In this document: positions 4,903 to 20,435 of the stretch, one piece after another
Numbering within the stretch: the first letter of the stretch is position 1
How the letters are laid out: the number at the start of each line of letters is the position of its first letter
NCBI GenBank assembly: GCA_030156945.1
Contig: JASGLT010000001.1
Span: 113,677-177,676 of the forward strand
Direction of reading: 5' to 3'
DNA: 64,000 nt
Source of the DNA: Thermococcaceae archaeon
GTDB taxonomy: Archaea; Methanobacteriota_B; Thermococci; Thermococcales; Thermococcaceae
Made by a program: the position numbers and the translations under genes
The notes under the pieces: model-generated
Databases searched by the model: none
What the model saw: the letters and a program-made list of their open reading frames with translations, nothing else
What the model was told of the DNA's origin: nothing

Positions 4903-5832
4903 GTGATGAGCAGGTTTTCAATGGAAGAGCTGGAATTTCTTACGAATATCCTGCAAAAGCATCCCCTCGACAGCCTCAGAAAAATCTCAAAGGAGGAGAG
5001 GGTGGATTATTACAAGCTCAAACGGCTTTACGACAAGTACTACGGGAAACACGTCACAGTAAGCGCAATCTACAACCCAAGGAAACTCGGGCTAAAGAGC
5101 TATGTAACATTTCTAAGCGTCCCCTCCGATTCGATTCTTGAAGTGGCTAAAAAAATGTCTTCAAACCCCTACGTATCATACCTCAATCCTGCATTTGGGT
5201 TCAAAAACGGTCTCACAGCTTTCATGGCAGTTCCCAAGGATCAAGTCAACCTTATCGATGAGTTCCTTTCAAGGTACTCTGACGATTACGAGTGGTATGA
5301 AATGCAACCGTATTCTTACTCCATAGACGACTCTGAGGATGGAGGCTGGAAATTCAGCTACGACTACGCCATCCTGATGGATATTCTAAAGGAGGACGCC
5401 CGAACTCCCATATCCGAGATAGCAAACAAACTCGGAAAGACGGGACCCACCGTCAGGTACATGATAGAGAGGCTAAAAAAAGAAGGCGTAATCCTCGCGT
5501 TCGAGGCCGTAGTGGATATGACAACCCACGACAGGGGAGTAATCGGGATAACCCGCGAGCTGAAAGAGGAAGTTATCCAAAAGTTCCAAGATTACGAGAT
5601 GTTGATAGCAGTGCTGCCCGGCCATGGCTACATGATCGAGTGGTACTTCTCATCAAGTGAAGATTTGGGGCTGAAAGTGATGGAATTCAGCCGATACGTG
5701 GATAAGCTCCTGATTGAATACTTCGATGAAACCTTCAAGAAGATGAACGACGAGAGAATGAAAAGAAGGTTCAGGATGATAGTAAAAAAGGACGGGAGTG
5801 GCTACAGGTCCCTTCTGGATTTCATGGGCTAA
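4903..5832 (+). CDS. Lrp/AsnC-like transcriptional regulator with two HTH segments
   Basis: N-terminal HTH (ILQKHPLDSLRKISKEERVDYYKLKRL) and second HTH (ILKEDARTPISEIANKLGKTGPTVRYMIERLKKEGVI). Confidence 0.75.
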   Translation: MMSRFSMEELEFLTNILQKHPLDSLRKISKEERVDYYKLKRLYDKYYGKHVTVSAIYNPRKLGLKSYVTFLSVPSDSILEVAKKMSSNPYVSYLNPAFGFKNGLTAFMAVPKDQVNLIDEFLSRYSDDYEWYEMQPYSYSIDDSEDGGWKFSYDYAILMDILKEDARTPISEIANKLGKTGPTVRYMIERLKKEGVILAFEAVVDMTTHDRGVIGITRELKEEVIQKFQDYEMLIAVLPGHGYMIEWYFSSSEDLGLKVMEFSRYVDKLLIEYFDETFKKMNDERMKRRFRMIVKKDGSGYRSLLDFMG

Positions 5833-6761
5833 AAAACTATTGGGCAGTACTCAACTCCCCCCAGGTCTCCCGTGGCCTGGAACTCGAGTGCCCTGCAGTC
5901 GTGGCATATGTATTTGAAGGGGCATTTAGAGCAGGTTCCTATTCTGTCCTTTGTCAGCGTCCAGAAATCGTTGACCGCCTTTCTCCTGAGAATGTCCCTC
6001 AGCTTTCCGGTTTTTAAATCCCCAAGCACGAACCCCCGCAGGAGGGGACAGGGGAGTACGTAACCATCGGCAGTTACCGCCAGAGTGTCGGCGAGGCACG
6101 GGCTGTATTTTTCCAGGTTTGGGCTGAAGACCCTCCTGAGCTCAACGACATTGAAGTCGAGCTTTCTGTAGGAGCCGGGGAAGAGCACGTCCACGTATAC
6201 TTCTCCCTCAAAACCTATATTCATGCCCAAAAGTTCGTCAAGGTCCTTCCCCCTAACCGTCACCAACGCGCCGTGAAGCCAGTCAAAAACCTCAAGCTCC
6301 TTGATGTTGTCCCGATAGTAATCCACCTCGGCCACGAACTTAACACCTTCTACGGGAGAAGCCTTTTTCACATCCTCGAGAAGTGCCACTGCGTAAACTT
6401 CGGGAATTCCCAGCTCCACGGCGTAGGAAGACACCATGAGGAGCTGTTCAAGAGTGTCGTAATTGGTGAGCCAGAGCTCCTTTCCCCCCATTTTAGCGAA
6501 CTCCCTTAAAATCTCCTGGATTTCCTCAACGCTCATTGGCTCACGGCGCAGGATGAATCTGTTGTTGCCGATGCATCCTATAGAACGAGGTATACCCTCG
6601 GTTTCCGAAAATCTCCCCTTTCCCTCACCCAGCTGCACTATAAGCCTCTCAAGCTTCCCTTTTTTGGGTTTGACTGTCCACGGAGGTTTTGCCACCGATA
6701 CAACCCTCAGCTTAGAGTTGCCTCTCAAACTAATTACGGCACTTTCAACTGCCTCTTCCAT
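5829..6761 (-). CDS. SPASM-domain protein without radical SAM CxxxCxxC motif
   Basis: C-terminal ADGYVLPCPLLRG...CSKCPFKYICHDCRALEFQATGDLGGVEYCPIVF SPASM-like Cys cluster; no N-terminal CxxxCxxC in 310 aa. Confidence 0.7.
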   Translation of the reverse strand: MEEAVESAVISLRGNSKLRVVSVAKPPWTVKPKKGKLERLIVQLGEGKGRFSETEGIPRSIGCIGNNRFILRREPMSVEEIQEILREFAKMGGKELWLTNYDTLEQLLMVSSYAVELGIPEVYAVALLEDVKKASPVEGVKFVAEVDYYRDNIKELEVFDWLHGALVTVRGKDLDELLGMNIGFEGEVYVDVLFPGSYRKLDFNVVELRRVFSPNLEKYSPCLADTLAVTADGYVLPCPLLRGFVLGDLKTGKLRDILRRKAVNDFWTLTKDRIGTCSKCPFKYICHDCRALEFQATGDLGGVEYCPIVF

Positions 6762-6816
6762 GCTGCCTCCCCCAGGAGGGGATGGAAGGGAACCTATAAA
6801 TACTTTTTCTATTCAT

Positions 6817-6833
6817 ATTTTGCATACTATCAA
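6817..6833 (-). promoter_or_regulatory. 17-nt promoter motif TTGATAGTATGCAAAAT, copy 1
   Basis: attttgcatactatcaa on + strand; upstream of a TATA-like gtatttatagg and the SPASM gene. Confidence 0.5.
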
Positions 6834-9362: not shown

Positions 9363-9611
9363 TTAAGCCTCCCCCAGCATCTTTGATTCACTTCCCACCC
9401 TTTTCACAAGTTCTTCCGGAGTCATGTATTCGACTCTACCGTGCTCTCCTATGATGTAGGGCTCTTTCTTAGTCCTGTTCTTTTTCTGATCCGCCATGAA
9501 CGCGATTACAAGAACCCCAAAGCCCACGAGATCCCATGTACTAACTGCCTCCTGAACGATCAGGGCGAGAATATAGAAAACAAAAATGAGAATCCAATAT
9601 TTGACTTTCAT
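9363..9611 (-). CDS. Small membrane protein (candidate immunity protein, paralogue of 9787..10119)
   Basis: Two TM segments plus KKEPYIIGEHGRVEYMTPEELVKRV shared with neighbour PREPYIIGDSKEIEYLTEEELEQRL. Confidence 0.65.
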   Translation of the reverse strand: MKVKYWILIFVFYILALIVQEAVSTWDLVGFGVLVIAFMADQKKNRTKKEPYIIGEHGRVEYMTPEELVKRVGSESKMLGEA

Positions 9612-9659: not shown

Positions 9660-9770
9660 TTACAACCACGTAAAACCTAACCTCGTACGAGTGCTCACCC
9701 TCACTCGCCAACCATTGAAGGGTGAAGCTTTTAGTGGAGCCAGCACTAACGCTCCCGCTCAATGGGTCAT
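9660..9770 (-). pseudogene. Orphan CARDB junction fragment
   Basis: DNA matches the recurring junction (tcgtacgagtgctcaccct...attgaagggtgaagcttttagtggagcc), reading like ...STKSFTLQW.ASEGEHSYEVR; no intact ORF. Confidence 0.65.
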
Positions 9771-9786: not shown

Positions 9787-10119
9787 TCATGACTCTCCAG
9801 TTTTTCCATGCTTAAGACGTTGTTCCAGCTCTTCTTCTGTAAGATACTCAATTTCCTTTGAATCACCAATGATGTAGGGTTCTCGTGGAACTTTCTTACA
9901 TCGCTCATAATGTTTCATATCGCAAAGTACCCAGAGTACGAACAGCGGCCAAGTGGGCAAGATTGCAATTAAGATACTCCACGGAATAGATCCAATTACG
10001 TAAACAGCCAATAGAAAGATAAAGACAAAAGGGACGACAAACTCTGCAAAACGTTTACTCATACTCGCCTCTTGCAATCTAGTTGTTAAGTATAATTCAA
10101 CATCATTCATTTTCCTCAC
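9787..10119 (-). CDS. Small membrane protein (candidate immunity protein)
   Basis: 110 aa, 2 TM, shares xEPYIIGxxxxxEYxTxEEL motif with 9363..9611; overlaps upstream gene. Confidence 0.65.
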   Translation of the reverse strand: MRKMNDVELYLTTRLQEASMSKRFAEFVVPFVFIFLLAVYVIGSIPWSILIAILPTWPLFVLWVLCDMKHYERCKKVPREPYIIGDSKEIEYLTEEELEQRLKHGKTGES

Positions 10120-10621
10120 CTTGGTTTTTGAATTCTAGGGTGAAGTCTAGTATGTGTAGTCCTAGTAGTGCTAGAGCTTGAAGCCCATAAATTGTGCGAT
10201 AGTAGAGGACGAGAGTGAGGGGGAGGATAATCATTAAGAGCACGGGTCTCTTAAGATCCTCCTTCAGCTTAAAATCATAAGCTAAATCACTAATAAACCT
10301 CAACACCCTATCCATGTAAAACAAAGGCAAAAACATCCACAAAAACCACAAAAGTGCAAAAGACTTTCCCAAAACTAAGATCAACGCGGCTATTGCGAGC
10401 CATATTGGGAAGAATAGTTTTGCCTCGAACTTGAACTTCTCTTTTTCAATCTCTTTATTAAACCACGCGCTCATAAGAGTGAATACTACAGAATAATACA
10501 AGTTAAGATGAACTATAGGGTATGCATTCGAAGAATAATTATCCCCCGTAATGAACACTAAAATAAGAGAAACAAGACCAGCCAGAGTCATGGCAATTCG
10601 AAGTACTTCTCTAACCTGCAT
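10103..10621 (-). CDS. Multi-TM membrane protein (candidate immunity protein)
   Basis: 172 aa with several hydrophobic helices, begins 5 nt after the 10626..11561 cassette. Confidence 0.65.
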   Translation of the reverse strand: MQVREVLRIAMTLAGLVSLILVFITGDNYSSNAYPIVHLNLYYSVVFTLMSAWFNKEIEKEKFKFEAKLFFPIWLAIAALILVLGKSFALLWFLWMFLPLFYMDRVLRFISDLAYDFKLKEDLKRPVLLMIILPLTLVLYYRTIYGLQALALLGLHILDFTLEFKNQGEENE

Positions 10622-10625
10622 GGCA

Positions 10626-11438
10626 CTACCCTCCTACGACATCATTATTGTCAAATCCTGAGTCTGGATCTGGAGCAAAAAGCCAGTCGTAGATGTCCAC
10701 TCCTATCAATAAGACAGTAAACGCTATGCCCCCAAATTTTGCTACTTTACTCCCAGCCTTTAACATGAGTAACCCTGCTGCCACATATTTCTCTGCCTCA
10801 ATGTCGTTTTTAATATAACTAACGAAAGCTTTAGCCTCTTCCACGACTCCTTTATCTTTAACCACAAGATCCTCACTTATCACGTCATCTTCAAAGACGA
10901 ACTTAATTTTATATATGTAACCCCCAAGTTGCTCCTTATATGAGGCATCTAATGGATCCAACGGATCCTTTCCAAAGTACCAGTTGGCGAAATCGTCATA
11001 AAGTATAATCCTCACTTGGATTGTGTCTGAGGGAGTTAAAGTATAACTTTTGCTATCCATGATAACACTTTTCACGCTGGATGTTCCTTCTTCCCAAACC
11101 TTCTTTCCACCGAACCATATCTGACGAAGTTCAAGGGAATTAACAGAAATTTGAGGATTCCACGAAGCAACACACGTAATGGGCTCCCCGGGATACACCT
11201 CTTTTGTGCAGTCTAAATTCGGAGAAACAATCTTTCCAACAACTTCCACAGTCACTTCCGCCCAGTGTTCTTCTCCTGCACCGTTCGGTTCACCATCATA
11301 ATTGTCGAGGAAGAGTTTGAACGTGTGGTTGCCAACACCCTGGATAGTGTAACTGAAACTAACGTTCCTCCCGCCATTCGCTGGAACTCTACCCTCAAAA
11401 CCATCAAAATTCCGAACCTGTGAGGTTGAGTATACCAT
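10626..11438 (-). CDS. Partial CARDB surface-protein cassette, signal-less, with hydrophobic C-terminal tail
   Basis: DGFEGRVPANGGRNVSFSYTIQGVGNHTFKLFLDNYDGEPNGAGEEHWAEVTV nearly identical to the full-length protein; ORF extends to 11561 but homology starts near 11407. Confidence 0.75.
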   Translation of the reverse strand: MVYSTSQVRNFDGFEGRVPANGGRNVSFSYTIQGVGNHTFKLFLDNYDGEPNGAGEEHWAEVTVEVVGKIVSPNLDCTKEVYPGEPITCVASWNPQISVNSLELRQIWFGGKKVWEEGTSSVKSVIMDSKSYTLTPSDTIQVRIILYDDFANWYFGKDPLDPLDASYKEQLGGYIYKIKFVFEDDVISEDLVVKDKGVVEEAKAFVSYIKNDIEAEKYVAAGLLMLKAGSKVAKFGGIAFTVLLIGVDIYDWLFAPDPDSGFDNNDVVGG

Positions 11439-11496
11439 CACATCTCCCTCAAAAACCGAGTTGAGAGAACTGAGGGCAACACTCTTATTCGGACTG

Positions 11497-11889
11497 TCAG
11501 CAGGGGATATCCGATGATACATCCACAATATCCTCACCCCTCTCATCTCCCCCAGAGACACCGCCCCTTGCCCACTTCATATAATAACTCCTGAGAAGGT
11601 AAGCATAAACCCCAGCCCAGATGATATTGTCCAAATAAGTCCTGAGACCGGGATTCATGCTGTCGACAACAAGGCCCAAATACATGATGATAAACGCTGA
11701 AGCCACCACTGGGGCAGGCATCTGTCTGGTTTTAAACACCCACCACACAGTAAAACTCCAAAGCAAAAGCAGAGAAATCTGAAGAACAAAAGAAAAATCA
11801 AAGTACCAATAGTAGATATTAACGAAACTCTCCCATGATAATAACAAAAGGGGGAGCAAGAGGAGCACTTTAAATGTGAAGCTACCCAT
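11497..11889 (-). CDS. Multi-TM membrane protein (candidate immunity protein)
   Basis: 130 aa hydrophobic protein directly after cassette 11896..12687. Confidence 0.65.
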   Translation of the reverse strand: MGSFTFKVLLLLPLLLLSWESFVNIYYWYFDFSFVLQISLLLLWSFTVWWVFKTRQMPAPVVASAFIIMYLGLVVDSMNPGLRTYLDNIIWAGVYAYLLRSYYMKWARGGVSGGDERGEDIVDVSSDIPC

Positions 11890-11895
11890 TAGGCA

Positions 11896-12687
11896 TCACC
11901 CCCAGAAGCTCTTTACGAATTCCCACAGCTTGTCTCCTGACTTAGATATCAATATTATTGTCACTATGATTTTTATTACGTTTTTGCCAAAGTTTTTCAG
12001 CCTTTGAACTCTCATGTCATGGTCGTATTTCTCCTGAGCACTTCCAGTGTAGAATAACGTTGTAGACGCTTTTAGAGCTTTATTGTTAAAGATAACGCCG
12101 TCGTTCTCATCAAAAACATCAAACCTGAGAATGATGCTGTATTCTGTATCCCAATAAGCAATCTGATATATTGTGTACGTATTGATATTGCCCCGGACTG
12201 TCGAGGACAATAAGTCATGATTGTCGGAGAGGCCAAAATGGGAAGCAAACCCATCATCCACCTTGCCGAGGTTTATCGGAATTTCCCGGGACGAGTGTGG
12301 GGGCACTTCTTTAAATGTGCTTAGATAGAAGATTCCCTCCAAGTTTTCAAAACGTTTGTAATTGATATCCGCCTCCTCATACGTCACTTCACCACAGAGA
12401 GTAATGTTGTTCAATTGCACTTTTACGGCAGTGGGATTATTGTTCACGACATGAACGATGCATGCGAAGCCCTCACCCAGACCAACCCGTGAAGGACACT
12501 CCAGCCTCATTTTCATCCCACTGCTTGGATTTGCAGCAACACTCACCCCTCCGCTCCAACCATCCACTTCCAACTCCTGCCCACCAACGACCTCGTAAAG
12601 CCTAACCCCGTACGAATGCTCACCCTGAACAGCAGTCCACTGAAGGGTGAAACTTTTAGTGGAGCTTGCGGGAACACTACCCCTCAC
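11896..12687 (-). CDS. Partial CARDB surface-protein cassette, signal-less, with divergent tail
   Basis: Begins MRGSVPASSTKSFTLQWTAVQGEHSYGVRLYEVVGGQELEVDGWSGGVSVA; then C...C domain and tail NVIKIIVTIILISKSGDKLWEFVKSFWG. Confidence 0.75.
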   Translation of the reverse strand: MRGSVPASSTKSFTLQWTAVQGEHSYGVRLYEVVGGQELEVDGWSGGVSVAANPSSGMKMRLECPSRVGLGEGFACIVHVVNNNPTAVKVQLNNITLCGEVTYEEADINYKRFENLEGIFYLSTFKEVPPHSSREIPINLGKVDDGFASHFGLSDNHDLLSSTVRGNINTYTIYQIAYWDTEYSIILRFDVFDENDGVIFNNKALKASTTLFYTGSAQEKYDHDMRVQRLKNFGKNVIKIIVTIILISKSGDKLWEFVKSFWG

Positions 12688-12770
12688 CGAACCAGCCTCC
12701 TAACCGTCTATGAGGAATATAGGAAATTAGTTACTGATTAAAAAGAAAAACAAAAAGTGGGAGTTCACTA

Positions 12771-13082
12771 TTATGAATCTTTTCGGGAATGTTCTGGTTT
12801 GGGGTACAGTTTTGTTAACACTAATATGTATATCAAGCTCGATAATGTGACTAGAAGGAAAACAATGATGTAAATTGAGGAGTGCAGTGCCCAAGGTGCC
12901 CATGTTCGGAACCATGCCCAATACGCCAGGAACATTGGCAGTCCAAGTACCGTCCTTTGTACCAGATGATAGTTTCCTCGCCTTAAATGAACGAGTAAGG
13001 CTATTGAGACTATCACCATCGTTGCAGGGTATAATACAATATTGAGTACAGACAAAGCATCGTCCAGAGTCATTCCCATCAC
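12771..13082 (-). CDS. Multi-TM membrane protein (candidate immunity protein)
   Basis: 103 aa hydrophobic protein; start overlaps stop of cassette 13079..13870. Confidence 0.65.
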   Translation of the reverse strand: MMGMTLDDALSVLNIVLYPATMVIVSIALLVHLRRGNYHLVQRTVLGLPMFLAYWAWFRTWAPWALHSSIYIIVFLLVTLSSLIYILVLTKLYPKPEHSRKDS

Positions 13083-13870
13083 CCCCGTATCGATAAGTCC
13101 ACTACAATGAATGTGACAATTACACCCACTATAGCCGCTCCAACTGGACCCAATCCAAGAGATGCTGCTATTAATGCTGTTGTAAGCCCAACACCCCCAC
13201 CAATTAGTAGCTCTTTTCCAATTTTCTCACTCTCCTTTTTCATGAGAGGGCTTCCGAAGTAGTAGAGTGTTATGGTCTTAGTGATGGTCGCATCCTCCTG
13301 CGGGTACGGCATGTCTATTTGTATAGTGAGAGTGTAGACCGTATCCGTCCAGTCAAACGAATATGACCCTATCGCAGGGTCATGTATGTATCTGTAGTCC
13401 AGTAGTTTTTTGTCCTCTGGGATTTCAATGGGAGCCACTAGCAGAACCTCAGTATGATTAGGGTCTATATTGATGGAATTCTGAATAGGGTACTCAATGC
13501 TCACTGTTCTAGTCTCGTGAAGATACTCATTGTAAGGATGGCCAGTTAAAATGACTTCTTTAGTGTTTATGCCAACCCTCTCGTTTAAAGTATTCTTTAA
13601 GTAGATTTTGCATTCGATAGTCTCACCAAGGCCAGCCCGCGGAGGACAGTCCACGTTTAATATTTCGACGCCCTTAATTTCATTTTTTTCTGAGATGCTA
13701 ATGCTTCCACTCTCACTGTCAACCTGCAACTCCTGCTCACCAACGACCTCGAAAAACTTCACCCCGTACGAATGCTCCCCAGCCTCAGCAGTCCATTGAA
13801 GGGTGAAGCTTTTAGCGGAGCTTGCTGGAGCTGGCGGAACGGGATTCATTATACTCACACCCTCCCTCAA
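13079..13870 (-). CDS. Partial CARDB surface-protein cassette with Gly-rich TM tail
   Basis: PASSAKSFTLQWTAEAGEHSYGVKFFEVVGEQELQVDSESG then tail LLIGGGVGLTTALIAASLGLGPVGAAIVGVIVTFIVVDLSIRG. Confidence 0.75.
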   Translation of the reverse strand: MREGVSIMNPVPPAPASSAKSFTLQWTAEAGEHSYGVKFFEVVGEQELQVDSESGSISISEKNEIKGVEILNVDCPPRAGLGETIECKIYLKNTLNERVGINTKEVILTGHPYNEYLHETRTVSIEYPIQNSINIDPNHTEVLLVAPIEIPEDKKLLDYRYIHDPAIGSYSFDWTDTVYTLTIQIDMPYPQEDATITKTITLYYFGSPLMKKESEKIGKELLIGGGVGLTTALIAASLGLGPVGAAIVGVIVTFIVVDLSIRG

Positions 13871-14355
13871 TCTTTTCTCAAATCTTCAAACATTATATAT
13901 CCAGCAAACACGAGCATTATCGCGGCAATGGCTTCACTCCAATTAGATGTTGAAACGCCTTCAATAAGGGGATTCAACGAGAAGAACCCCAAGAGCAGTA
14001 CCCCAAACCATCTAAGCCTCACTTCGGCGTTCTTTGCTGGAGGTTCTTTTCTAAGGCCGTACTGAGCCAGCAGTATAAATCCAGAGAGGGCGAGAAGAAT
14101 TGCCAATAACAAAGCCGCGAGAGTAACGCCAACAATAAGGGCACCTGTAAGAATTATAGTGATATTTGTCACAAGAAAGACATTTGACGGTCTCTCTGAA
14201 ATTTTCTTTTTTCCTCGTATCATCCATAGGATTGTTGTCCAGACGTATATAACCGAGAGGGTTACACTGGCAAGGGTTAACGTTACCCTCAAGTCTGTGG
14301 CAATATATACGAAGAGAAGCGAGAGAACATAAGTGAGAATACCCCAGTATCTCAT
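13867..14355 (-). CDS. Multi-TM membrane protein (candidate orphan immunity protein)
   Basis: 162 aa polytopic protein, overlapping starts and stops with both neighbours. Confidence 0.65.
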   Translation of the reverse strand: MRYWGILTYVLSLLFVYIATDLRVTLTLASVTLSVIYVWTTILWMIRGKKKISERPSNVFLVTNITIILTGALIVGVTLAALLLAILLALSGFILLAQYGLRKEPPAKNAEVRLRWFGVLLLGFFSLNPLIEGVSTSNWSEAIAAIMLVFAGYIMFEDLRKD

Positions 14356-14846
14356 GGCCCCGCCCCCATCAGTGCTTCGACGATTAGATACCCTATTATG
14401 GCTGGAAACGGATAGATCAAGGTCTCCAGGGTCTGTTCAGGTTTAAATGCAAGGATCAGGGCGTTAACTAGCTGAAAGGGCCAAAAGCGTTTGAACTTGC
14501 GTAGTGGGCCTACTGTTGATAAGTGCAAGAGGCCTAAGTACCCGAACCAGATCAAAAACACCACCACTAGTTTAAGAACAATTTTATGCTCCTCATAAAT
14601 GTATGCGATTGCCAGCAGTAGTGCCAAGAATAGGGTGAAGGTTAGATATAAAACGCCCTTGACTTTATGTGTTTTTGTATCTGATCCTCTGAATAGTATA
14701 ACCAGAAAAGCCAAGATTTGGATGAAGATTAAATTGGCTGCTAGTACTACCATCCCCAAGAGAGATCCTTCTGCCCAGCCTATAAGGGCGGAAGATAGAA
14801 CAAAAAATAAAAGGCCTGTAGAAAGTTTTAGGATACTGCTCTCCAT
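14352..14846 (-). CDS. Multi-TM membrane protein, paralogue of 14944..15462
   Basis: Alignable C-terminal halves (FWPFQLVNALILAFKPEQTLETLIYPFPAIIGYLIVEAL versus FWAYQWIVMVVLAIKSNEPIKVFLLLLFGLIGGYLIIKGL). Confidence 0.65.
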   Translation of the reverse strand: MESSILKLSTGLLFFVLSSALIGWAEGSLLGMVVLAANLIFIQILAFLVILFRGSDTKTHKVKGVLYLTFTLFLALLLAIAYIYEEHKIVLKLVVVFLIWFGYLGLLHLSTVGPLRKFKRFWPFQLVNALILAFKPEQTLETLIYPFPAIIGYLIVEALMGAGP

Positions 14847-14943
14847 TTATGCACCCCCCTAAGGGAATAGTTCTCAAATCTTAACTGGAATTGTAACGTT
14901 GTTACCAACACACATTAGACCCCCTCCTTTGCACCTGTTTTTG

Positions 14944-15462
14944 TTACCACTCTTTTTTGAGCTGGATAAGCCCTTTGATTATTAAGTATCCCCCAATCAG
15001 CCCAAATAATAATAACAGGAACACTTTTATCGGCTCGTTAGATTTAATGGCAAGAACTACCATAACAATCCACTGATATGCCCAGAAATACTTGACTTCC
15101 CCCGATGGATAAGTAAGTTGGTCCCTACTACGTTTGGCTAAATACAACGGAAATATGAACAATAAAACCAAAATTGTAAAAACAGCCACTATCCCCATAA
15201 TTCTACCTAAATCGTGGGATACTACCGCAATTATTCCCAAGATGCCCAAGAACAAGGCGAAAGAAGTTTGAATGATGTGCCATATTCTTTTGTCTCCCCC
15301 TGACGGCCTTGACCAGAGAACAATCGTCCCCCATAACGGGACAAACATTAGATTTATTGCGAGTACGTATAAACCACTTTCAATTCCCCGAACTTCTCCA
15401 ATCAAAATAATGGAGAGTGTAATAAGAAAGAACCCCATGAGGAAACTTCTCTTGAATCCCAT
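14944..15462 (-). CDS. Multi-TM membrane protein (candidate immunity protein)
   Basis: ATG preceded by GGGGGG-rich RBS; starts 11 nt after cassette stop; ORF as listed extends to 15579. Confidence 0.65.
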   Translation of the reverse strand: MGFKRSFLMGFFLITLSIILIGEVRGIESGLYVLAINLMFVPLWGTIVLWSRPSGGDKRIWHIIQTSFALFLGILGIIAVVSHDLGRIMGIVAVFTILVLLFIFPLYLAKRSRDQLTYPSGEVKYFWAYQWIVMVVLAIKSNEPIKVFLLLLFGLIGGYLIIKGLIQLKKEW

Positions 15463-15473
15463 ATCAAGCCCCC

Positions 15474-16655
15474 CTAAGGTAACCCTAGTACCTTGTAAGT
15501 TATAAACCCAACTGCAGCTCCGATCAACGTTCCCCCTCCGGGTACAGCCGAACCTATGGTGGCCCCAATCTTGGTGCATTTAAGTATGTATGCAGTTGCA
15601 ACTCCAGCACCAAATCCAACGGCCATTGAAATTACAAGATGTTCTATCACTTTGTCTGAATCTACCCTTATTGTCACATATTTAGTGGCTTCATAACTTA
15701 AACCCCATATCTTTCCTTTTGAATCAATTACATAGGGCTGCCCATTAACAAGTACCGTGAAATTCACTTGAACTGGAACTGTGACGCCTGATAGTTTCTT
15801 TATCTCGATCCCACTCTCAATAATTCCCTTCTCAGGCAGAACATCGTGGAATTTTAGTTCAAACTCTCCAACACCCCCCGCTGGAACTGTTTTTGTGAGT
15901 ATCGTTGGTGGAGTAAATTCGGGAGTTAAATCCTTTGTATATCTTGTCTTAAGGATATGTGCGTTGGCATTAATGCTGGTTATCTCCCACTGCACATCAG
16001 TGGGATTTGTAAAGTACACAACGCACTCCATGTCTAAAACCAAATTTCCTTCCTTTGCCAATAACTGTAAATCACTACAGTCCATGACTGCCTTTTGCAC
16101 TTTTGTTTGAGTTACTTCAATGTACTCGCTTGCCATCGAGTACTCTCCAATTTTCAGTTTTAGAGTCGTGTTCTGAGTTATGGGTCCTATGGTTGCGATT
16201 ATTCTTGCAGTCTTGTTAGCATAGATTGTCAAATAGCCATCCGAGATTGAATAGCCCACTCCATGATAACCTTCCTTAGGCCACCAAACGTTCCCAGTAT
16301 CGTCAACTAACTCGATGGGCAATGTTTGCTTGTAGTTCTCCGAGTTCTTCACAGTGATGTAAACAGTCACATTATTACCCGCTTCAACCGGGTTTGGAAC
16401 AACCTCCAGCCAGGCAGAGAGACCATTCAACACGCGCGCAACACTCACCTCCCCGCTCCACTCATCCACTTCCAACTCTTGCCCACCAAGGACCTCGAAA
16501 AGCCTAACCTCGTATGAGTGCTCACCCTGAACAGCAACCCAGTGCAGAGCCACCGAAGCACCGGAAGTGCTGACATTAACTGGCTTCGAATCAACCAACA
16601 GACTATCCACAAGCAGTTCCACCATAGAAATCAGAAAGGTGAAGATAAAAGTCAA
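15474..16655 (-). CDS. Partial CARDB surface-protein cassette with Gly-rich TM tail
   Basis: VALHWVAVQGEHSYEVRLFEVLGGQELEVDEWSGEVSVA; tail LVISMAVGFGAGVATAYILKCTKIGATIGSAVPGGGTLIGAAVGFITYKVLGLP. Confidence 0.75.
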   Translation of the reverse strand: MTFIFTFLISMVELLVDSLLVDSKPVNVSTSGASVALHWVAVQGEHSYEVRLFEVLGGQELEVDEWSGEVSVARVLNGLSAWLEVVPNPVEAGNNVTVYITVKNSENYKQTLPIELVDDTGNVWWPKEGYHGVGYSISDGYLTIYANKTARIIATIGPITQNTTLKLKIGEYSMASEYIEVTQTKVQKAVMDCSDLQLLAKEGNLVLDMECVVYFTNPTDVQWEITSINANAHILKTRYTKDLTPEFTPPTILTKTVPAGGVGEFELKFHDVLPEKGIIESGIEIKKLSGVTVPVQVNFTVLVNGQPYVIDSKGKIWGLSYEATKYVTIRVDSDKVIEHLVISMAVGFGAGVATAYILKCTKIGATIGSAVPGGGTLIGAAVGFITYKVLGLP

Positions 16656-16744
16656 AGGTCATGAACTCGAAATTCATTCATGATATCACCTGCAAGACGC
16701 CATTGTTATCATTTTCCTATGCGGATTACTCTGGCAGTGACATT

Positions 16745-17263
16745 TCATGTCAACCCCTCCTTATATAACTGGGCAACGTATAACACCACAGCTATTCCAC
16801 CTAAAAGTATAATAGCGTAGTCTTTGATTATCCAGATTAATGCCCAAAGTGCCAACAATGTTAGCGCCACATAAGTTTTTCCGAGCTTTTGGCCCAATGA
16901 GATTATTCCAATCCCATTTAGCAGGCTTATTGAGACTATTTTAAGAAGGATTGAAAAGTTCTCGATACCTTTTTTGACTACCAAATAAATCACCACAGCA
17001 ACCCATATAATGAGCACAATACTGCCTCCACTTGAAAACTCCTTGTCCTTTTTGGTCTGATTTGTAATTAGAGAATATGGTATCCCAAACGAAAAAATTC
17101 CAAATCCCAAGCCAAGGACAGGATTCTCAAAGGCCTTGCTAAGTGTCAGCAATTCCAGAGACAGCAGTGAAAAAGCAAAAGAAAGCTGAAGTACCCTCTT
17201 CCAGTTAGGATACGCAATAAGACCCAAAAAGGGAAGGAGGGAGACTATATACACTAGCTCCAT
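16745..17263 (-). CDS. Multi-TM membrane protein (candidate immunity protein)
   Basis: 172 aa polytopic protein starting 3 nt downstream of the full-length gene stop. Confidence 0.65.
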   Translation of the reverse strand: MELVYIVSLLPFLGLIAYPNWKRVLQLSFAFSLLSLELLTLSKAFENPVLGLGFGIFSFGIPYSLITNQTKKDKEFSSGGSIVLIIWVAVVIYLVVKKGIENFSILLKIVSISLLNGIGIISLGQKLGKTYVALTLLALWALIWIIKDYAIILLGGIAVVLYVAQLYKEGLT

Positions 17264-17266
17264 CTT

Positions 17267-20200
17267 TTACTCCCCCGTGAAATAGTCGAGATAACCAAAT
17301 ACCCTCCGCGAGTATTCAATCGCATTTCTCGCCCATACTATCACTTTGTTTGACCCCTTGAGGAATATCAGCGTAACGGCAATATCCACAGTAACAACTT
17401 TGTTATTCTGAGTTATTCTGCCACTACCGTAACCTTTGAATTTAAATGTTCCATGAGAAGTATTAAGGTTATACGGTAACTCCACGTAGTATGTACTTCC
17501 CCAGAGACCCCCCTCCAATACTGCGAGAGGAACCTCTGCAATTGACATAAACTGAATGGTAATATAACTCTGAGGAACTATTATATCAGATGAAATCTTA
17601 CCCTTAAACTTTTTCAGTCCAACATTCAATGCAGTTGGAGCGGCAGTAGCGTCTCCAATATCCAATCCATCAATTTTTATTTTTTCATCCGTGGGGTTGT
17701 ATATAATAGCAACACATTCAACTTCCGCTTGATAGTTTATGAGAACGTTCTTGATGGACTCTAGATTTACACCCGTGACTAGCTTAGTGAAATACAAATC
17801 ACTGCACTCAAACCCCACCTGCTTTAATTCAGTCCCATTCACAGGTTTCACTTTCACCGTCACTTCTGCCCAATGTTCTTCTCCTGCACCGTTCGGTTCA
17901 CCATCATAATTGTCGAGGAAGAGTTTGAACGCGTGGTTGCCAACACCATGGATAGTGTAACTGAAACTAACGTTCCTCCCGCCATTCGCTGGAACTCCAC
18001 CCTCAAAACCATCAATCCTCTTTATTATCGCCCCACTCTCATCCTCCACGAAACCCCTAACGGAGATGGCACTAGAGTCAAAATTCCAAATCCTAACAGT
18101 AAAGAACACTGTTCCGCCGCCTTCAAGTTCTGTTGGGAATGCCTCCAAAGAGACTGCAAACTGCTGATACTGAGAAGCAACACTCACCTCTCCACTCCAA
18201 CCATCCACTTCCAACTCCTGCCCACCAAGGACCTCGAAAAGCCTAACCTCGTATGAGTGCTCACCCTGAACAGCAGTCCACTGAAGGGTGAAGCTTTTGG
18301 TGGAGCTTGCTGGAACACTACCGCTCACCGAATCAACCACCTTGCCATCAATGAGGAGCTTCAGCTTAACAGTTTTGCTCTGGGTGTATGAGTTCTCAAC
18401 ATTAACCTTGAACGTGAGCTGTTCGCCGCTCTTTACCGTCTCCGGGCTCCTGGTAACACCCACAATTTGCAGTGAGCCGCTTGATGTAGAACCCTTGGAA
18501 ACCACAAAATACCCGCTTAGAATCTTCGAATGCTGGCCAAAGCTGCATTTCATGGTATAGCTGTACGATCCGGAGTACGCATAGTGGGCCGAGCCAAGCG
18601 TTACGGTATCACTCCCACCGTTTCCTGGAGCATCGAAACCCCCAGATGGTCTATATATGCCCCTGCTTGTGCTCGTCTGTGGAACTTCAACTTCAAGCAT
18701 GCAAGAGCCGCTAATCGGCTCACTGTTGTAGTTTGTAACAACGGCTTTGAACGTTAAATCCTCTCCTTCTTCAAAACTCCCATCCCTGTCCGAATCCTGA
18801 ATTAAAAGCGATGCTTGAACTTTACCTGGATCTATCGGGTCTTCAAGAGTTATTGTCGCCGAATAAGAAACCTCAATCAGCCTAGTTGATGTTAGGGAAT
18901 ATTCGGAATCCGTTGAAAGGGGAGTGTCTCCCGAAGAGGGCTTGTATGTAATCTTGACCGTTCCACTAACCAAAACGCTTCCAGTTCCGTATACCCTCCC
19001 GCTATTAGTGCTCTCCACGGTCGTAATCTCATCTTTATACAAAAATCCAACGCTCTCCGAATCCTCGAGTTCGGTGCCACTGAACTCCACCTCGATGTTG
19101 GAAACTGCATTTTTCTCAGCCTTAATCTCAACCACGACTTTGTACGTGGCATAATCCGCAGTTGTCGTCACTGGAACTACATAAATCGATGTGACCACGA
19201 GCCTTCCTTCCTCTCCAGCAGCCAAGGCCTCTTCAACAAGAGGACCTCCCTCTCCAGCTACAGATATTGGACCTATTGGGCTTGGAAGGACTCCCATGCA
19301 TCCAGATGAACGTGTGTAGGTCTTTAGAGCATCTGCGAGTTGAGAAACCTTCTCGTTAAGCATATAGGTCAGCTCGGGATTTGAGTTTCCGGCTTTCTTG
19401 GCGAGAAGTATTGACTCAACCTGAAGTGTAAGGTTGTATGCTTTAAGGGCGTTCCATGTGTACTCTATCTTGCATGAGTTCAACGATTCCGAGGAGGACG
19501 TTGGTTTTATAATTGGCTTTATGGGCTTTATAGGAGTTGGTTCTGGTCTTGGCGGAGAGGGTGAAGGACCGCCTAAAAATTTGGTTATGACAATGTACCC
19601 CCCAGAAACACGAACCATTGATGTGTTTGAGTCCAATTTACCGGAGATTATGTTAAGCTCTTCCTGCTTCAGCTTTTGTATGGCATAAAGCTTATCATCA
19701 ACCCCCCCTGATCTGTATGCAGTGTAAAAGTTTACCCACCCCATTAATAGCTGAGGGAGAATTACGCGATTACCGGCAAGACTTGGATTTCCATCCGCCC
19801 CGCGCCAGTACTTCCATTCCAAACCCTTAGTTTCATACTCATTGTACCTGAATGCTACCCTTAGGAACGCAGTTGAAAAGTCGGAAAGGAATTTTTCCAT
19901 GTCAAAATCCCCATGAATGTAGTCGGCGTTTTGAACAATGTAGTCTTGAAGGGCCTGGATTTCCTCATCGCTCCATCCCTGCTCCTTAAGGGCATTAACA
20001 GTTTCCTGGGGAAGGCCCTTTCTTTTGATTTCCTGAGCCATTGCCCTGAGCTCACTTTCCGTATAGTGGAGTTTCACTCCGGAGGCCTTAAGCTCCGTGA
20101 GTGCCTCCCACACAAGGGCTGAAATTTGAGCCGCGTTCTCAGAGCCATCCCGAGAGTTTTTGATGAGCTCATTGATGGCACTCAAATTCCCTCTCTGAGC

Positions 20201-20365
20201 TTTGGGAACCAGTTCAGCCTCCCTGTTTAGTATCTCCCAAAAGGCATCGTAGACCGAGCTTTTAGTTCCTGAAGTTGCAGCTACCACATAACCCGAGAAA
20301 GTCGCTGAACTCACGCTGAAACCTACTATCAACATAGCCACCAGTAAGCTTAGTACTTTTCTCAT
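17267..20365 (-). CDS. Large secreted CARDB-repeat surface protein (full-length head of the array)
   Basis: 1032 aa, signal peptide MRKVLSLLVAMLIVGFSVSSATFSGYVVAA, Pro-rich linker, repeated CARDB-like domains, C-terminal Cys-pair domain and distinct tail. Confidence 0.85.
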   Translation of the reverse strand: MRKVLSLLVAMLIVGFSVSSATFSGYVVAATSGTKSSVYDAFWEILNREAELVPKAQRGNLSAINELIKNSRDGSENAAQISALVWEALTELKASGVKLHYTESELRAMAQEIKRKGLPQETVNALKEQGWSDEEIQALQDYIVQNADYIHGDFDMEKFLSDFSTAFLRVAFRYNEYETKGLEWKYWRGADGNPSLAGNRVILPQLLMGWVNFYTAYRSGGVDDKLYAIQKLKQEELNIISGKLDSNTSMVRVSGGYIVITKFLGGPSPSPPRPEPTPIKPIKPIIKPTSSSESLNSCKIEYTWNALKAYNLTLQVESILLAKKAGNSNPELTYMLNEKVSQLADALKTYTRSSGCMGVLPSPIGPISVAGEGGPLVEEALAAGEEGRLVVTSIYVVPVTTTADYATYKVVVEIKAEKNAVSNIEVEFSGTELEDSESVGFLYKDEITTVESTNSGRVYGTGSVLVSGTVKITYKPSSGDTPLSTDSEYSLTSTRLIEVSYSATITLEDPIDPGKVQASLLIQDSDRDGSFEEGEDLTFKAVVTNYNSEPISGSCMLEVEVPQTSTSRGIYRPSGGFDAPGNGGSDTVTLGSAHYAYSGSYSYTMKCSFGQHSKILSGYFVVSKGSTSSGSLQIVGVTRSPETVKSGEQLTFKVNVENSYTQSKTVKLKLLIDGKVVDSVSGSVPASSTKSFTLQWTAVQGEHSYEVRLFEVLGGQELEVDGWSGEVSVASQYQQFAVSLEAFPTELEGGGTVFFTVRIWNFDSSAISVRGFVEDESGAIIKRIDGFEGGVPANGGRNVSFSYTIHGVGNHAFKLFLDNYDGEPNGAGEEHWAEVTVKVKPVNGTELKQVGFECSDLYFTKLVTGVNLESIKNVLINYQAEVECVAIIYNPTDEKIKIDGLDIGDATAAPTALNVGLKKFKGKISSDIIVPQSYITIQFMSIAEVPLAVLEGGLWGSTYYVELPYNLNTSHGTFKFKGYGSGRITQNNKVVTVDIAVTLIFLKGSNKVIVWARNAIEYSRRVFGYLDYFTGE

Positions 20366-20418
20366 GGTATCACCAAAGCGATGTTTTATTGTAATGCAAT
20401 AAAAAATTTTATCTTTAA

Positions 20419-20435
20419 ATTTTGCATACTATCAA
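20419..20435 (-). promoter_or_regulatory. 17-nt promoter motif TTGATAGTATGCAAAAT, copy 2
   Basis: attttgcatactatcaa on + strand, identical to 6817-6833; upstream of the array head gene. Confidence 0.5.

What the first reader, a model, noticed from the sequence alone, without database searches (positions are those of the whole stretch)
10626..17860. All five C-termini share a Cys-pair domain before divergent tails
Right after the CARDB junction each protein has a Cys...Cys segment: LDCTKEVYPGEPITC (10626 cassette), LECPSRVGLGEGFAC (11896), VDCPPRAGLGETIEC (13079), MDCSDLQLLAKEGNLVLDMEC (15474), FECSDLYF...QAEVEC (full length). The downstream sequence then diverges. This suggests a common disulfide-stabilised beta domain that presents or delivers the variable tail.
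Basis: partly seen in the sequence, partly recalled or inferred. Interest (0 to 1): 0.75.

Follow-up and report, generated by a model that had tools for sequence, protein, structure and literature searches.

The report
Swappable toxin-like tips, archaeal surface protein
A heat-loving archaeon carries one long surface protein and four spare versions of its end, each made of the same cysteine-paired immunoglobulin-like block plus a different greasy tip followed by its own membrane protein; this is the known but unexplained VARTIG system, and the pattern looks like interchangeable toxin tips with matching antidotes.

Summary
All five C-termini have a Cys-pair segment after a CARDB Ig domain, as do 68 of 72 C-termini from Thermococcales. 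Profile comparison links the segments, and two AlphaFold models give Ig-like beta sandwiches of about 130-145 residues. Divergence lies mainly in the last 45-75 residues.

The locus is a VARTIG module (Makarova et al. 2021, PMC8416519). That paper already noted the two cysteines, the DNNxxxGG end and the array layout, but left the function open.

New here:
(1) The membrane protein encoded directly downstream tracks the variable tip, not the Cys domain (partial r 0.60 vs 0.02).
(2) 105 of 111 intact tails are followed, at a median 6 nt, by a multi-TM protein.
(3) Tips are hydrophobic; some match glycine zippers.
(4) The window's orphan cassettes start with 83-96% identical DNA copies of the main gene's CARDB region, ending at the CARDB/Cys boundary.
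(5) Related membrane proteins also occur without tails; orphan tails are more often incomplete.

Best reading: an archaeal polymorphic effector/immunity array with membrane-active tips and recombination handles, working like CDI ionophore toxins without detectable homology to them. Toxicity, the disulfide and delivery are not shown.

The parts
17267..20365 (-). Full-length VARTIG (arCOG07710-like) surface protein, 1032 aa: signal-like N-terminus, conserved N-terminal domain, CARDB/Ig domains, Cys-pair Ig domain, variable tip
   Evidence: (CARDB E 1e-5)
18167..18475 (-). CARDB domain whose DNA recurs as stubs downstream (three cassettes and the decayed stub)
17852..18166 (-). Next CARDB-like domain; its end is the stub of cassette 10626
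17405..17836 (-). Cys-pair Ig-like domain of the full-length protein (aa 844-987; Cys854 and Cys884)
   Evidence: model pLDDT about 90; Ig-like fold matches Z up to 8.1
17270..17404 (-). Variable tip of the full-length protein (aa 988-1032), low model confidence
16745..17263 (-). Cognate multi-TM partner (putative immunity protein)
15474..16655 (-). Orphan cassette: stub, extra CARDB-like domain, Cys-pair domain, Gly-zipper-like tip
16438..16547 (-). CARDB DNA stub, 91.8% identical to the main gene (nt 2080-2189)
14944..15462 (-). Multi-TM partner of cassette 15474; its family sits next to the same tail family elsewhere
14352..14846 (-). Standalone paralogue of the 14944 partner (orphan immunity-like)
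   Evidence: 27.5% identity, E 3e-8
13867..14355 (-). Standalone multi-TM protein of a family that directly follows family-3 tails in two other genomes
13079..13870 (-). Orphan cassette: stub, Cys-pair domain (VDCPPRAGLGETIEC), very hydrophobic tip
13706..13829 (-). CARDB DNA stub, 82.9% identical to the main gene
12771..13082 (-). Two-TM partner of cassette 13079
11896..12687 (-). Orphan cassette with Cys-pair domain and tip ending KLWEFVKSFWG
12535..12716 (-). CARDB DNA stub, 90.1% identical to the main gene
11497..11889 (-). Three-TM partner of cassette 11896
10626..11561 (-). Orphan cassette; conserved part starts near 11408; Cys-pair Ig domain about 10857-11237, tip 10629-10853 ending DNNDVVGG
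11242..11407 (-). CARDB DNA stub, 95.8% identical to the main gene (nt 2351-2516)
10103..10621 (-). Multi-TM partner of cassette 10626
9787..10119 (-). Standalone small TM protein of a family that follows 4-Cys family-2 tails elsewhere
9665..9761 (-). Decayed CARDB stub (79% identical), tail lost
9363..9611 (-). Standalone small TM protein after the decayed stub; same family as family-2 partners elsewhere
20407..20429 (-). Conserved promoter-proximal element upstream of the main gene (GTnTGnAAAATTTGAATAGAAAA type)

Best explanation
The locus is a VARTIG module acting as an archaeal polymorphic effector/immunity array. Shown: one full-length gene encodes a long N-terminal and Ig-stalk protein that ends in a conserved Cys-pair Ig-like domain plus a hypervariable, hydrophobic tip. 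The next gene encodes a multi-pass membrane protein matched to that tip. Four further C-terminal cassettes, each with its own membrane partner, lie downstream without the N-terminal part and begin with near-identical DNA of the main gene's CARDB domains. Inferred: the stalk is exported and displayed; the Cys-pair Ig domain is a rigid, probably disulfide-locked adaptor; the tip inserts into the membrane of neighbouring Thermococcales cells and disrupts it; the partner sits in the producer's membrane and blocks its cognate tip; incoming or orphan cassettes recombine with the main gene through the CARDB repeat, so tip and partner switch together; old cassettes stay downstream, mainly for immunity.
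For: Common Cys-pair Ig domain: 68/72 tails, profile links, models. Tip and partner co-vary, scaffold does not: partial r 0.60 for tip given scaffold vs 0.02 for scaffold given tip, 0 of 2000 within-family permutations reach it; with equal 70-aa blocks and a non-redundant set 0.59 vs 0.03. Obligate coupling: 105 of 111 intact tails are followed within 150 nt by an ORF with at least 2 predicted TM segments, median gap 6 nt, vs 54 of 554 control ORFs. Partner retention: 129 of 279 partner regions stand alone; 76% of these cover their query in one stretch vs 47% of orphan tails; tails in full-length genes 95%. Hydrophobic tips: median maximum 19-residue hydropathy 1.42 vs 0.52 for the Cys domain and 0.87 for control C-termini; Pfam Gly-zipper match above cutoff for one family-3 tip, sub-threshold Bacteriocin_IIc for two. 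Cassette exchange: each of the four orphan tails has a relative that is the C-terminus of a full-length gene in another species, and the window's own expressed tail is an orphan elsewhere. Intra-locus handle: all four stubs match the own full-length gene best among 47; overall 10 of 33 vs 1.3 expected, never reached in 5000 shuffles.
Against: No tip is homologous to a toxin of tested activity; Pfam, NCBIfam and PADLOC give no effector name. Only 28% of tips reach a usual TM hydropathy threshold, and the expressed tip in the window does not. Tip structure is predicted with low confidence. No known delivery machinery was identified. Coverage in one stretch is only a proxy for an intact gene. Makarova et al. 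2021 name the absence of recognisable toxins as the main caveat to this hypothesis.
Confidence: 0.55

Rival explanations
1. The tip is a C-terminal anchoring or sorting signal, and the adjacent membrane protein is its dedicated anchor, sorting or export partner. The variable Ig domain would be the functional part, for adhesion or recognition.
For: Hydrophobic C-termini, the DNNxxxGG terminal motif in family 0 and the tip-specific partner. Makarova et al. 2021 suggested a sortase-like signal.
Against: A sorting signal should be conserved, but the tip is the most variable part and goes with many unrelated partner families. 129 partner regions persist without a tail. The expressed tip in the window lacks a strong TM segment.
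Confidence: 0.2
2. Self/non-self (kin) recognition without killing: tip and partner are ligand and receptor on different cells, used for aggregation or mate choice.
For: Strong tip/partner co-variation and a hypervariable Ig-type surface protein limited to Thermococcales. One of the three hypotheses of Makarova et al. 2021.
Against: A receptor role does not explain orphan partners kept while orphan tails decay, nor truncated cassettes retained without a leader. Tips are more hydrophobic than expected for a soluble ligand.
Confidence: 0.15
3. Complement-like innate immunity against viruses or foreign cells, with the Ig domain and cysteines binding targets.
For: Weak A2M and significant CARDB Pfam similarity in the stalk; proposed in Makarova et al. 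2021.
Against: No thioester domain in the Pfam scan; no PADLOC match. Does not explain tip/partner pairing or the cassette array.
Confidence: 0.05
4. The Cys pairs arose independently in unrelated folds (no common domain).
For: Some family pairs (f2-f3, f0-f1) have weak direct profile scores. Spacing varies from 11 to 29 residues.
Against: Chain of profile links at 94, 79 and 69% vs 0-2% for nearly all controls. Both modelled families give Ig-like sandwiches with the Cys pair at the same place in the first strands.
Confidence: 0.05

Closest known systems
VARTIG modules of Thermococcales (arCOG07710; Makarova et al. 2021, PMC8416519)
   Same: Large CARDB/Ig surface protein first in the array, small C-terminal homologues and TM proteins downstream, two conserved Cys in the distal Ig domain, DNNxxxGG end, hypervariable C-terminus, Thermococcales only.
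   Different: They report no recombination within loci, no recombination features and no toxin. Here the tip/partner pairing is quantified, near-identical CARDB stubs point to intra-locus recombination or displacement, and hydrophobic tips suggest membrane-active effectors.
CDI ionophore toxins and their CdiI proteins (Halvorsen et al. 2024, PMC11630599)
   Same: Adaptor ('entry') domain followed by a membrane-active variable C-terminal domain, and a small hydrophobic immunity protein co-diversified with it. The two-TM partners of about 83-103 aa in family 2 resemble CdiI of 72-100 residues.
   Different: No CdiA/CdiB homology found, Ig-like adaptor instead, hyperthermophilic archaea, many partners larger (3-8 TM); activity unknown.
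Orphan cdiA-CT/cdiI and rhs-CT/rhsI modules (PMC4927057 and work cited there)
   Same: Tandem displaced C-terminal modules in the same orientation, with homology to the upstream main gene and retained immunity genes.
   Different: Handle is a CARDB Ig domain; switching has not been observed here.

Membership tests
VARTIG | Large surface protein with conserved N-terminus, first gene of a co-directed array | tested here: met
   N-terminal profile finds 51 of 94 Thermococcales genomes
VARTIG | CARDB/Ig domains in the C-terminal half | tested here: met
   Pfam CARDB E 1e-5, above cutoff
VARTIG | Two conserved Cys in the distal Ig domain | tested here: met
VARTIG | Hypervariable C-terminus with small homologues and TM proteins downstream | tested here: met
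VARTIG | D[ND]NxxxG[GD] C-terminal motif (in a subset of members) | tested here: met
   Cassette 10626 ends FDNNDVVGG
VARTIG | Restricted to Thermococcales | tested here: met
   No genome outside the 94 of the order matched among the 115 of the phylum held here
VARTIG | GN motif and conserved serine in the N-terminal region | not tested
   motif position not checked against the published alignment
Polymorphic toxin system | Variable C-terminal domains exchanged as cassettes with an adjacent cognate partner gene | tested here: met
   (co-variation and cassette exchange; immunity function itself not shown)
Polymorphic toxin system | C-terminal domain is toxic and neutralised by the partner | not testable with these tools
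   needs an experiment
CDI ionophore family (CdiA-CT/CdiI) | Five-helix ionophore bundle | tested here: inconclusive
   tips modelled with pLDDT about 33-44
CDI ionophore family (CdiA-CT/CdiI) | CdiA/CdiB-type two-partner delivery protein | tested here: not met
   No such Pfam or NCBIfam match in the main protein; works like, not a member

The most novel reading that the evidence does not exclude
VARTIG is an archaeal polymorphic system with membrane-active (ionophore-like) tips carried on a disulfide-locked Ig adaptor, with cognate membrane immunity proteins and an array of orphan cassettes that can be switched in through CARDB DNA repeats; it would be the first such system known in archaea.
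Probability: 0.45. Interest if true: 0.78.

Novelty: new member of a known kind. Interest (0 to 1): 0.6.

Why it matters
VARTIG was published as a hypervariable archaeal system of unknown function with three competing hypotheses. The tip/partner co-variation, the partners kept without tails, the hydrophobic tips and the DNA handles favour the conflict (toxin/immunity) hypothesis, offer an answer to its stated caveat (no nuclease-type toxins), and turn it into simple tests in Thermococcus. If true, it extends membrane-active polymorphic effectors to hyperthermophilic archaea and shows how a cassette array could be switched.

Tried and rejected
Pfam, NCBIfam and PADLOC scans for named toxin or immunity families: nothing above cutoff except CARDB and one Gly-zipper. 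PDB sequence search with the tail alignment of the full-length protein: nothing. Structure of the tips: low confidence, so no fold claim; the fold searches cover only the Ig part. No specific PDB homologue is claimed, since Z 7-8 matches are typical for Ig-like sandwiches. Clustering tips alone by permissive BLAST merged unrelated hydrophobic sequences and was replaced by alignment-score matrices. The search for related loci in genome contigs returned only 13 loci, all from metagenome-assembled genomes, so most comparisons use the genome search regions without organism names.
Full report
Where it is. The window lies on contig C46 of a 2.08-Mb, 53-contig Thermococcaceae genome, in which the protein search found one full-length copy and five partial ones, all in this locus. 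Everything discussed is on the - strand between 9363 and 20365. It comprises one 1032-aa gene (17267-20365), four truncated cassettes (15474-16655, 13079-13870, 11896-12687, 10626-11561), a decayed stub (9665-9761), and nine small hydrophobic proteins between and after them.

The observation. The five Cys...Cys segments are real. In 54 stretches of Thermococcales genomes, 68 of 72 tails of at least 180 aa carry C-x10..32-C within 62 residues of the start of the tail. Spacings are mostly 11, 12 and 17. Cys frequency there is ten times that of the rest of the tail, and the chance expectation is 0.75% per tail. In cassette 15474 one more CARDB-like domain lies between the stub and the Cys domain.

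One domain or several? Tail scaffolds fall into six main sequence families; the five window tails belong to families 0, 1, 2, 2 and 3. Profile-profile comparison links f0-f2 (94%), f0-f3 (79%), f1-f2 (69%) and f1-f4 (97%). Controls against partner and CARDB alignments give 0-2%, except f2-CARDB at 53%, which is itself an Ig-like domain. AlphaFold gives a beta sandwich for residues 7-150 of the full-length tail (pLDDT about 90 over most of it) and for residues 4-130 of cassette 10626 (about 75). The C-terminal 45-75 residues are at 31-44 in both. Best structural neighbours are mostly Ig-like domains: archaellum FlaF/FlaG, nectin-2 V domain, a domain of archaeal Fusexin1, the TMEM106B luminal domain, at Z 7-8. 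This supports the Ig-like fold but no specific relationship. The disulfide is plausible and unproven.

What varies with what. The decisive question is whether the Cys domain or the tip matters to the neighbouring membrane protein. Across 70 tail/partner pairs, partner similarity follows tip similarity (r 0.74) and not the Cys scaffold once the tip is accounted for (partial r 0.60 vs 0.02). No within-family permutation of 2000 reaches the observed value. With equal 70-aa blocks and a non-redundant set of 65, the correlation falls steadily from the C-terminus inwards (0.71, 0.63, 0.57, 0.50, 0.50), with partial 0.59 vs 0.03. So the Cys-pair Ig domain behaves as a shared adaptor, and specificity lies in the tip.

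The partner goes with the tip. 105 of 111 intact tails are followed within 150 nt (median 6 nt) by an ORF with at least two predicted TM segments, against 54 of 554 other ORFs. Partner families also occur alone: 129 of 279 regions, 76% of them covered in one stretch. Orphan tails are covered in one stretch in only 47% of cases, tails in full-length genes in 95% (Fisher P 4e-7 for standalone partners vs orphan tails). Coverage is a proxy for intactness and is affected by divergence. In the window, 14352, 13867, 9787 and 9363 are such standalone genes. This asymmetry fits immunity genes better than anchors or export partners.

The tip. Tips are more hydrophobic than the Cys domain and than other C-termini (median maximum 19-residue hydropathy 1.42, 0.52 and 0.87) and richer in Gly+Ala. 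One family-3 tip passes Pfam's Gly-zipper cutoff, and two give sub-threshold matches to Bacteriocin_IIc. Only 28% reach a usual TM threshold, and the window's expressed tip is among the weaker ones.

Cassette exchange and the handle. Each of the four orphan tails has a relative that is the C-terminus of a full-length gene in another species: for example cassette 13079 in four full-length genes at 62-69% identity, and cassette 10626 at 58% in a 1114-aa gene. The window's expressed tail is an orphan elsewhere, at 72%. Every orphan in the window begins with DNA of the main gene's CARDB region, at 95.8, 90.1, 82.9 and 91.8% identity over 110-182 nt, ending at or near the end of a CARDB domain. All four match the own full-length gene better than any of the other full-length genes compared. 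Over all genomes this is so for 10 of 33 stubs, against 1.3 expected and a maximum of 7 in 5000 shuffles. Makarova et al. 2021 saw no recombination within loci. These stubs are evidence of past recombination or displacement inside loci, as proposed for orphan cdiA-CT/cdiI modules (PMC4927057). Whether switching still happens is unknown.

What is known. The locus is a VARTIG module (PMC8416519). The paper already lists the Cys pair, the DNNxxxGG end, the TM proteins and their association with tail branches, the array layout and the parallel with polymorphic toxins, and it proposes three functions. The N-terminal profile is found in 51 of 94 Thermococcales genomes and in no genome of the phylum outside the order among those held. 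The closest working analogue is the CDI ionophore family, with an entry domain, a membrane-active variable domain and a small hydrophobic immunity protein (PMC11630599). No homology to CdiA or CdiB was found.

Side finding. A 23-nt element (GTnTGnAAAATTTGAATAGAAAA) begins about 61-69 nt before the start codon of roughly 30 of 39 VARTIG main genes. In the window's genome only three copies exist at up to three mismatches: at the main gene, at the SPASM-domain gene 5829-6761, and at one place on contig C1. In eight other genomes it precedes VARTIG main genes, orthologues of that SPASM protein, a lipoprotein-like family of about 268 aa and a few other genes, with no hits to the control pattern. 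VARTIG therefore seems to share a small regulon.

Verdict. The finding is real and the domain reading is largely right. The system is known, but the data here favour, without proving, a membrane-active effector/immunity array.

Noticed in passing
20407-20429 and 6805-6827 (- strand); G000:C1:57714-57736; L102-L131: A 23-nt element GTnTGnAAAATTTGAATAGAAAA just upstream of a TATA-like box precedes about 30 of 39 VARTIG main genes, the SPASM-domain gene 5829-6761 and its orthologues, and a lipoprotein-like family of about 268 aa; only 2-4 copies per genome and no control hits. It looks like a small regulon that includes VARTIG.
   Followed up: partly
5829-6761: SPASM-domain protein (TIGR04085, above cutoff) that shares its upstream element with the VARTIG gene; a possible co-regulated partner.
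   Followed up: partly
9363-9611 and 9787-10119: Two related small TM proteins sharing an EPYIIG...EYxTxEEL C-terminal motif (37% identity); relatives follow 4-Cys family-2 tails in other genomes, so they look like orphan immunity genes left after a decayed cassette.
   Followed up: partly
11896-12716 and 13079-13870: The truncated cassettes have plausible ribosome-binding sites and starts (AGGAGG..GTG near 12690; GGAGGGTGTGAGTATAATG near 13855), so they may be translated without a signal peptide.
   Followed up: no
family-2 tails in L067, L070, L072, L095, L101: A subfamily of tails (CxPKEVGLYEW type) carries a second Cys pair about 75 residues after the first.
   Followed up: no
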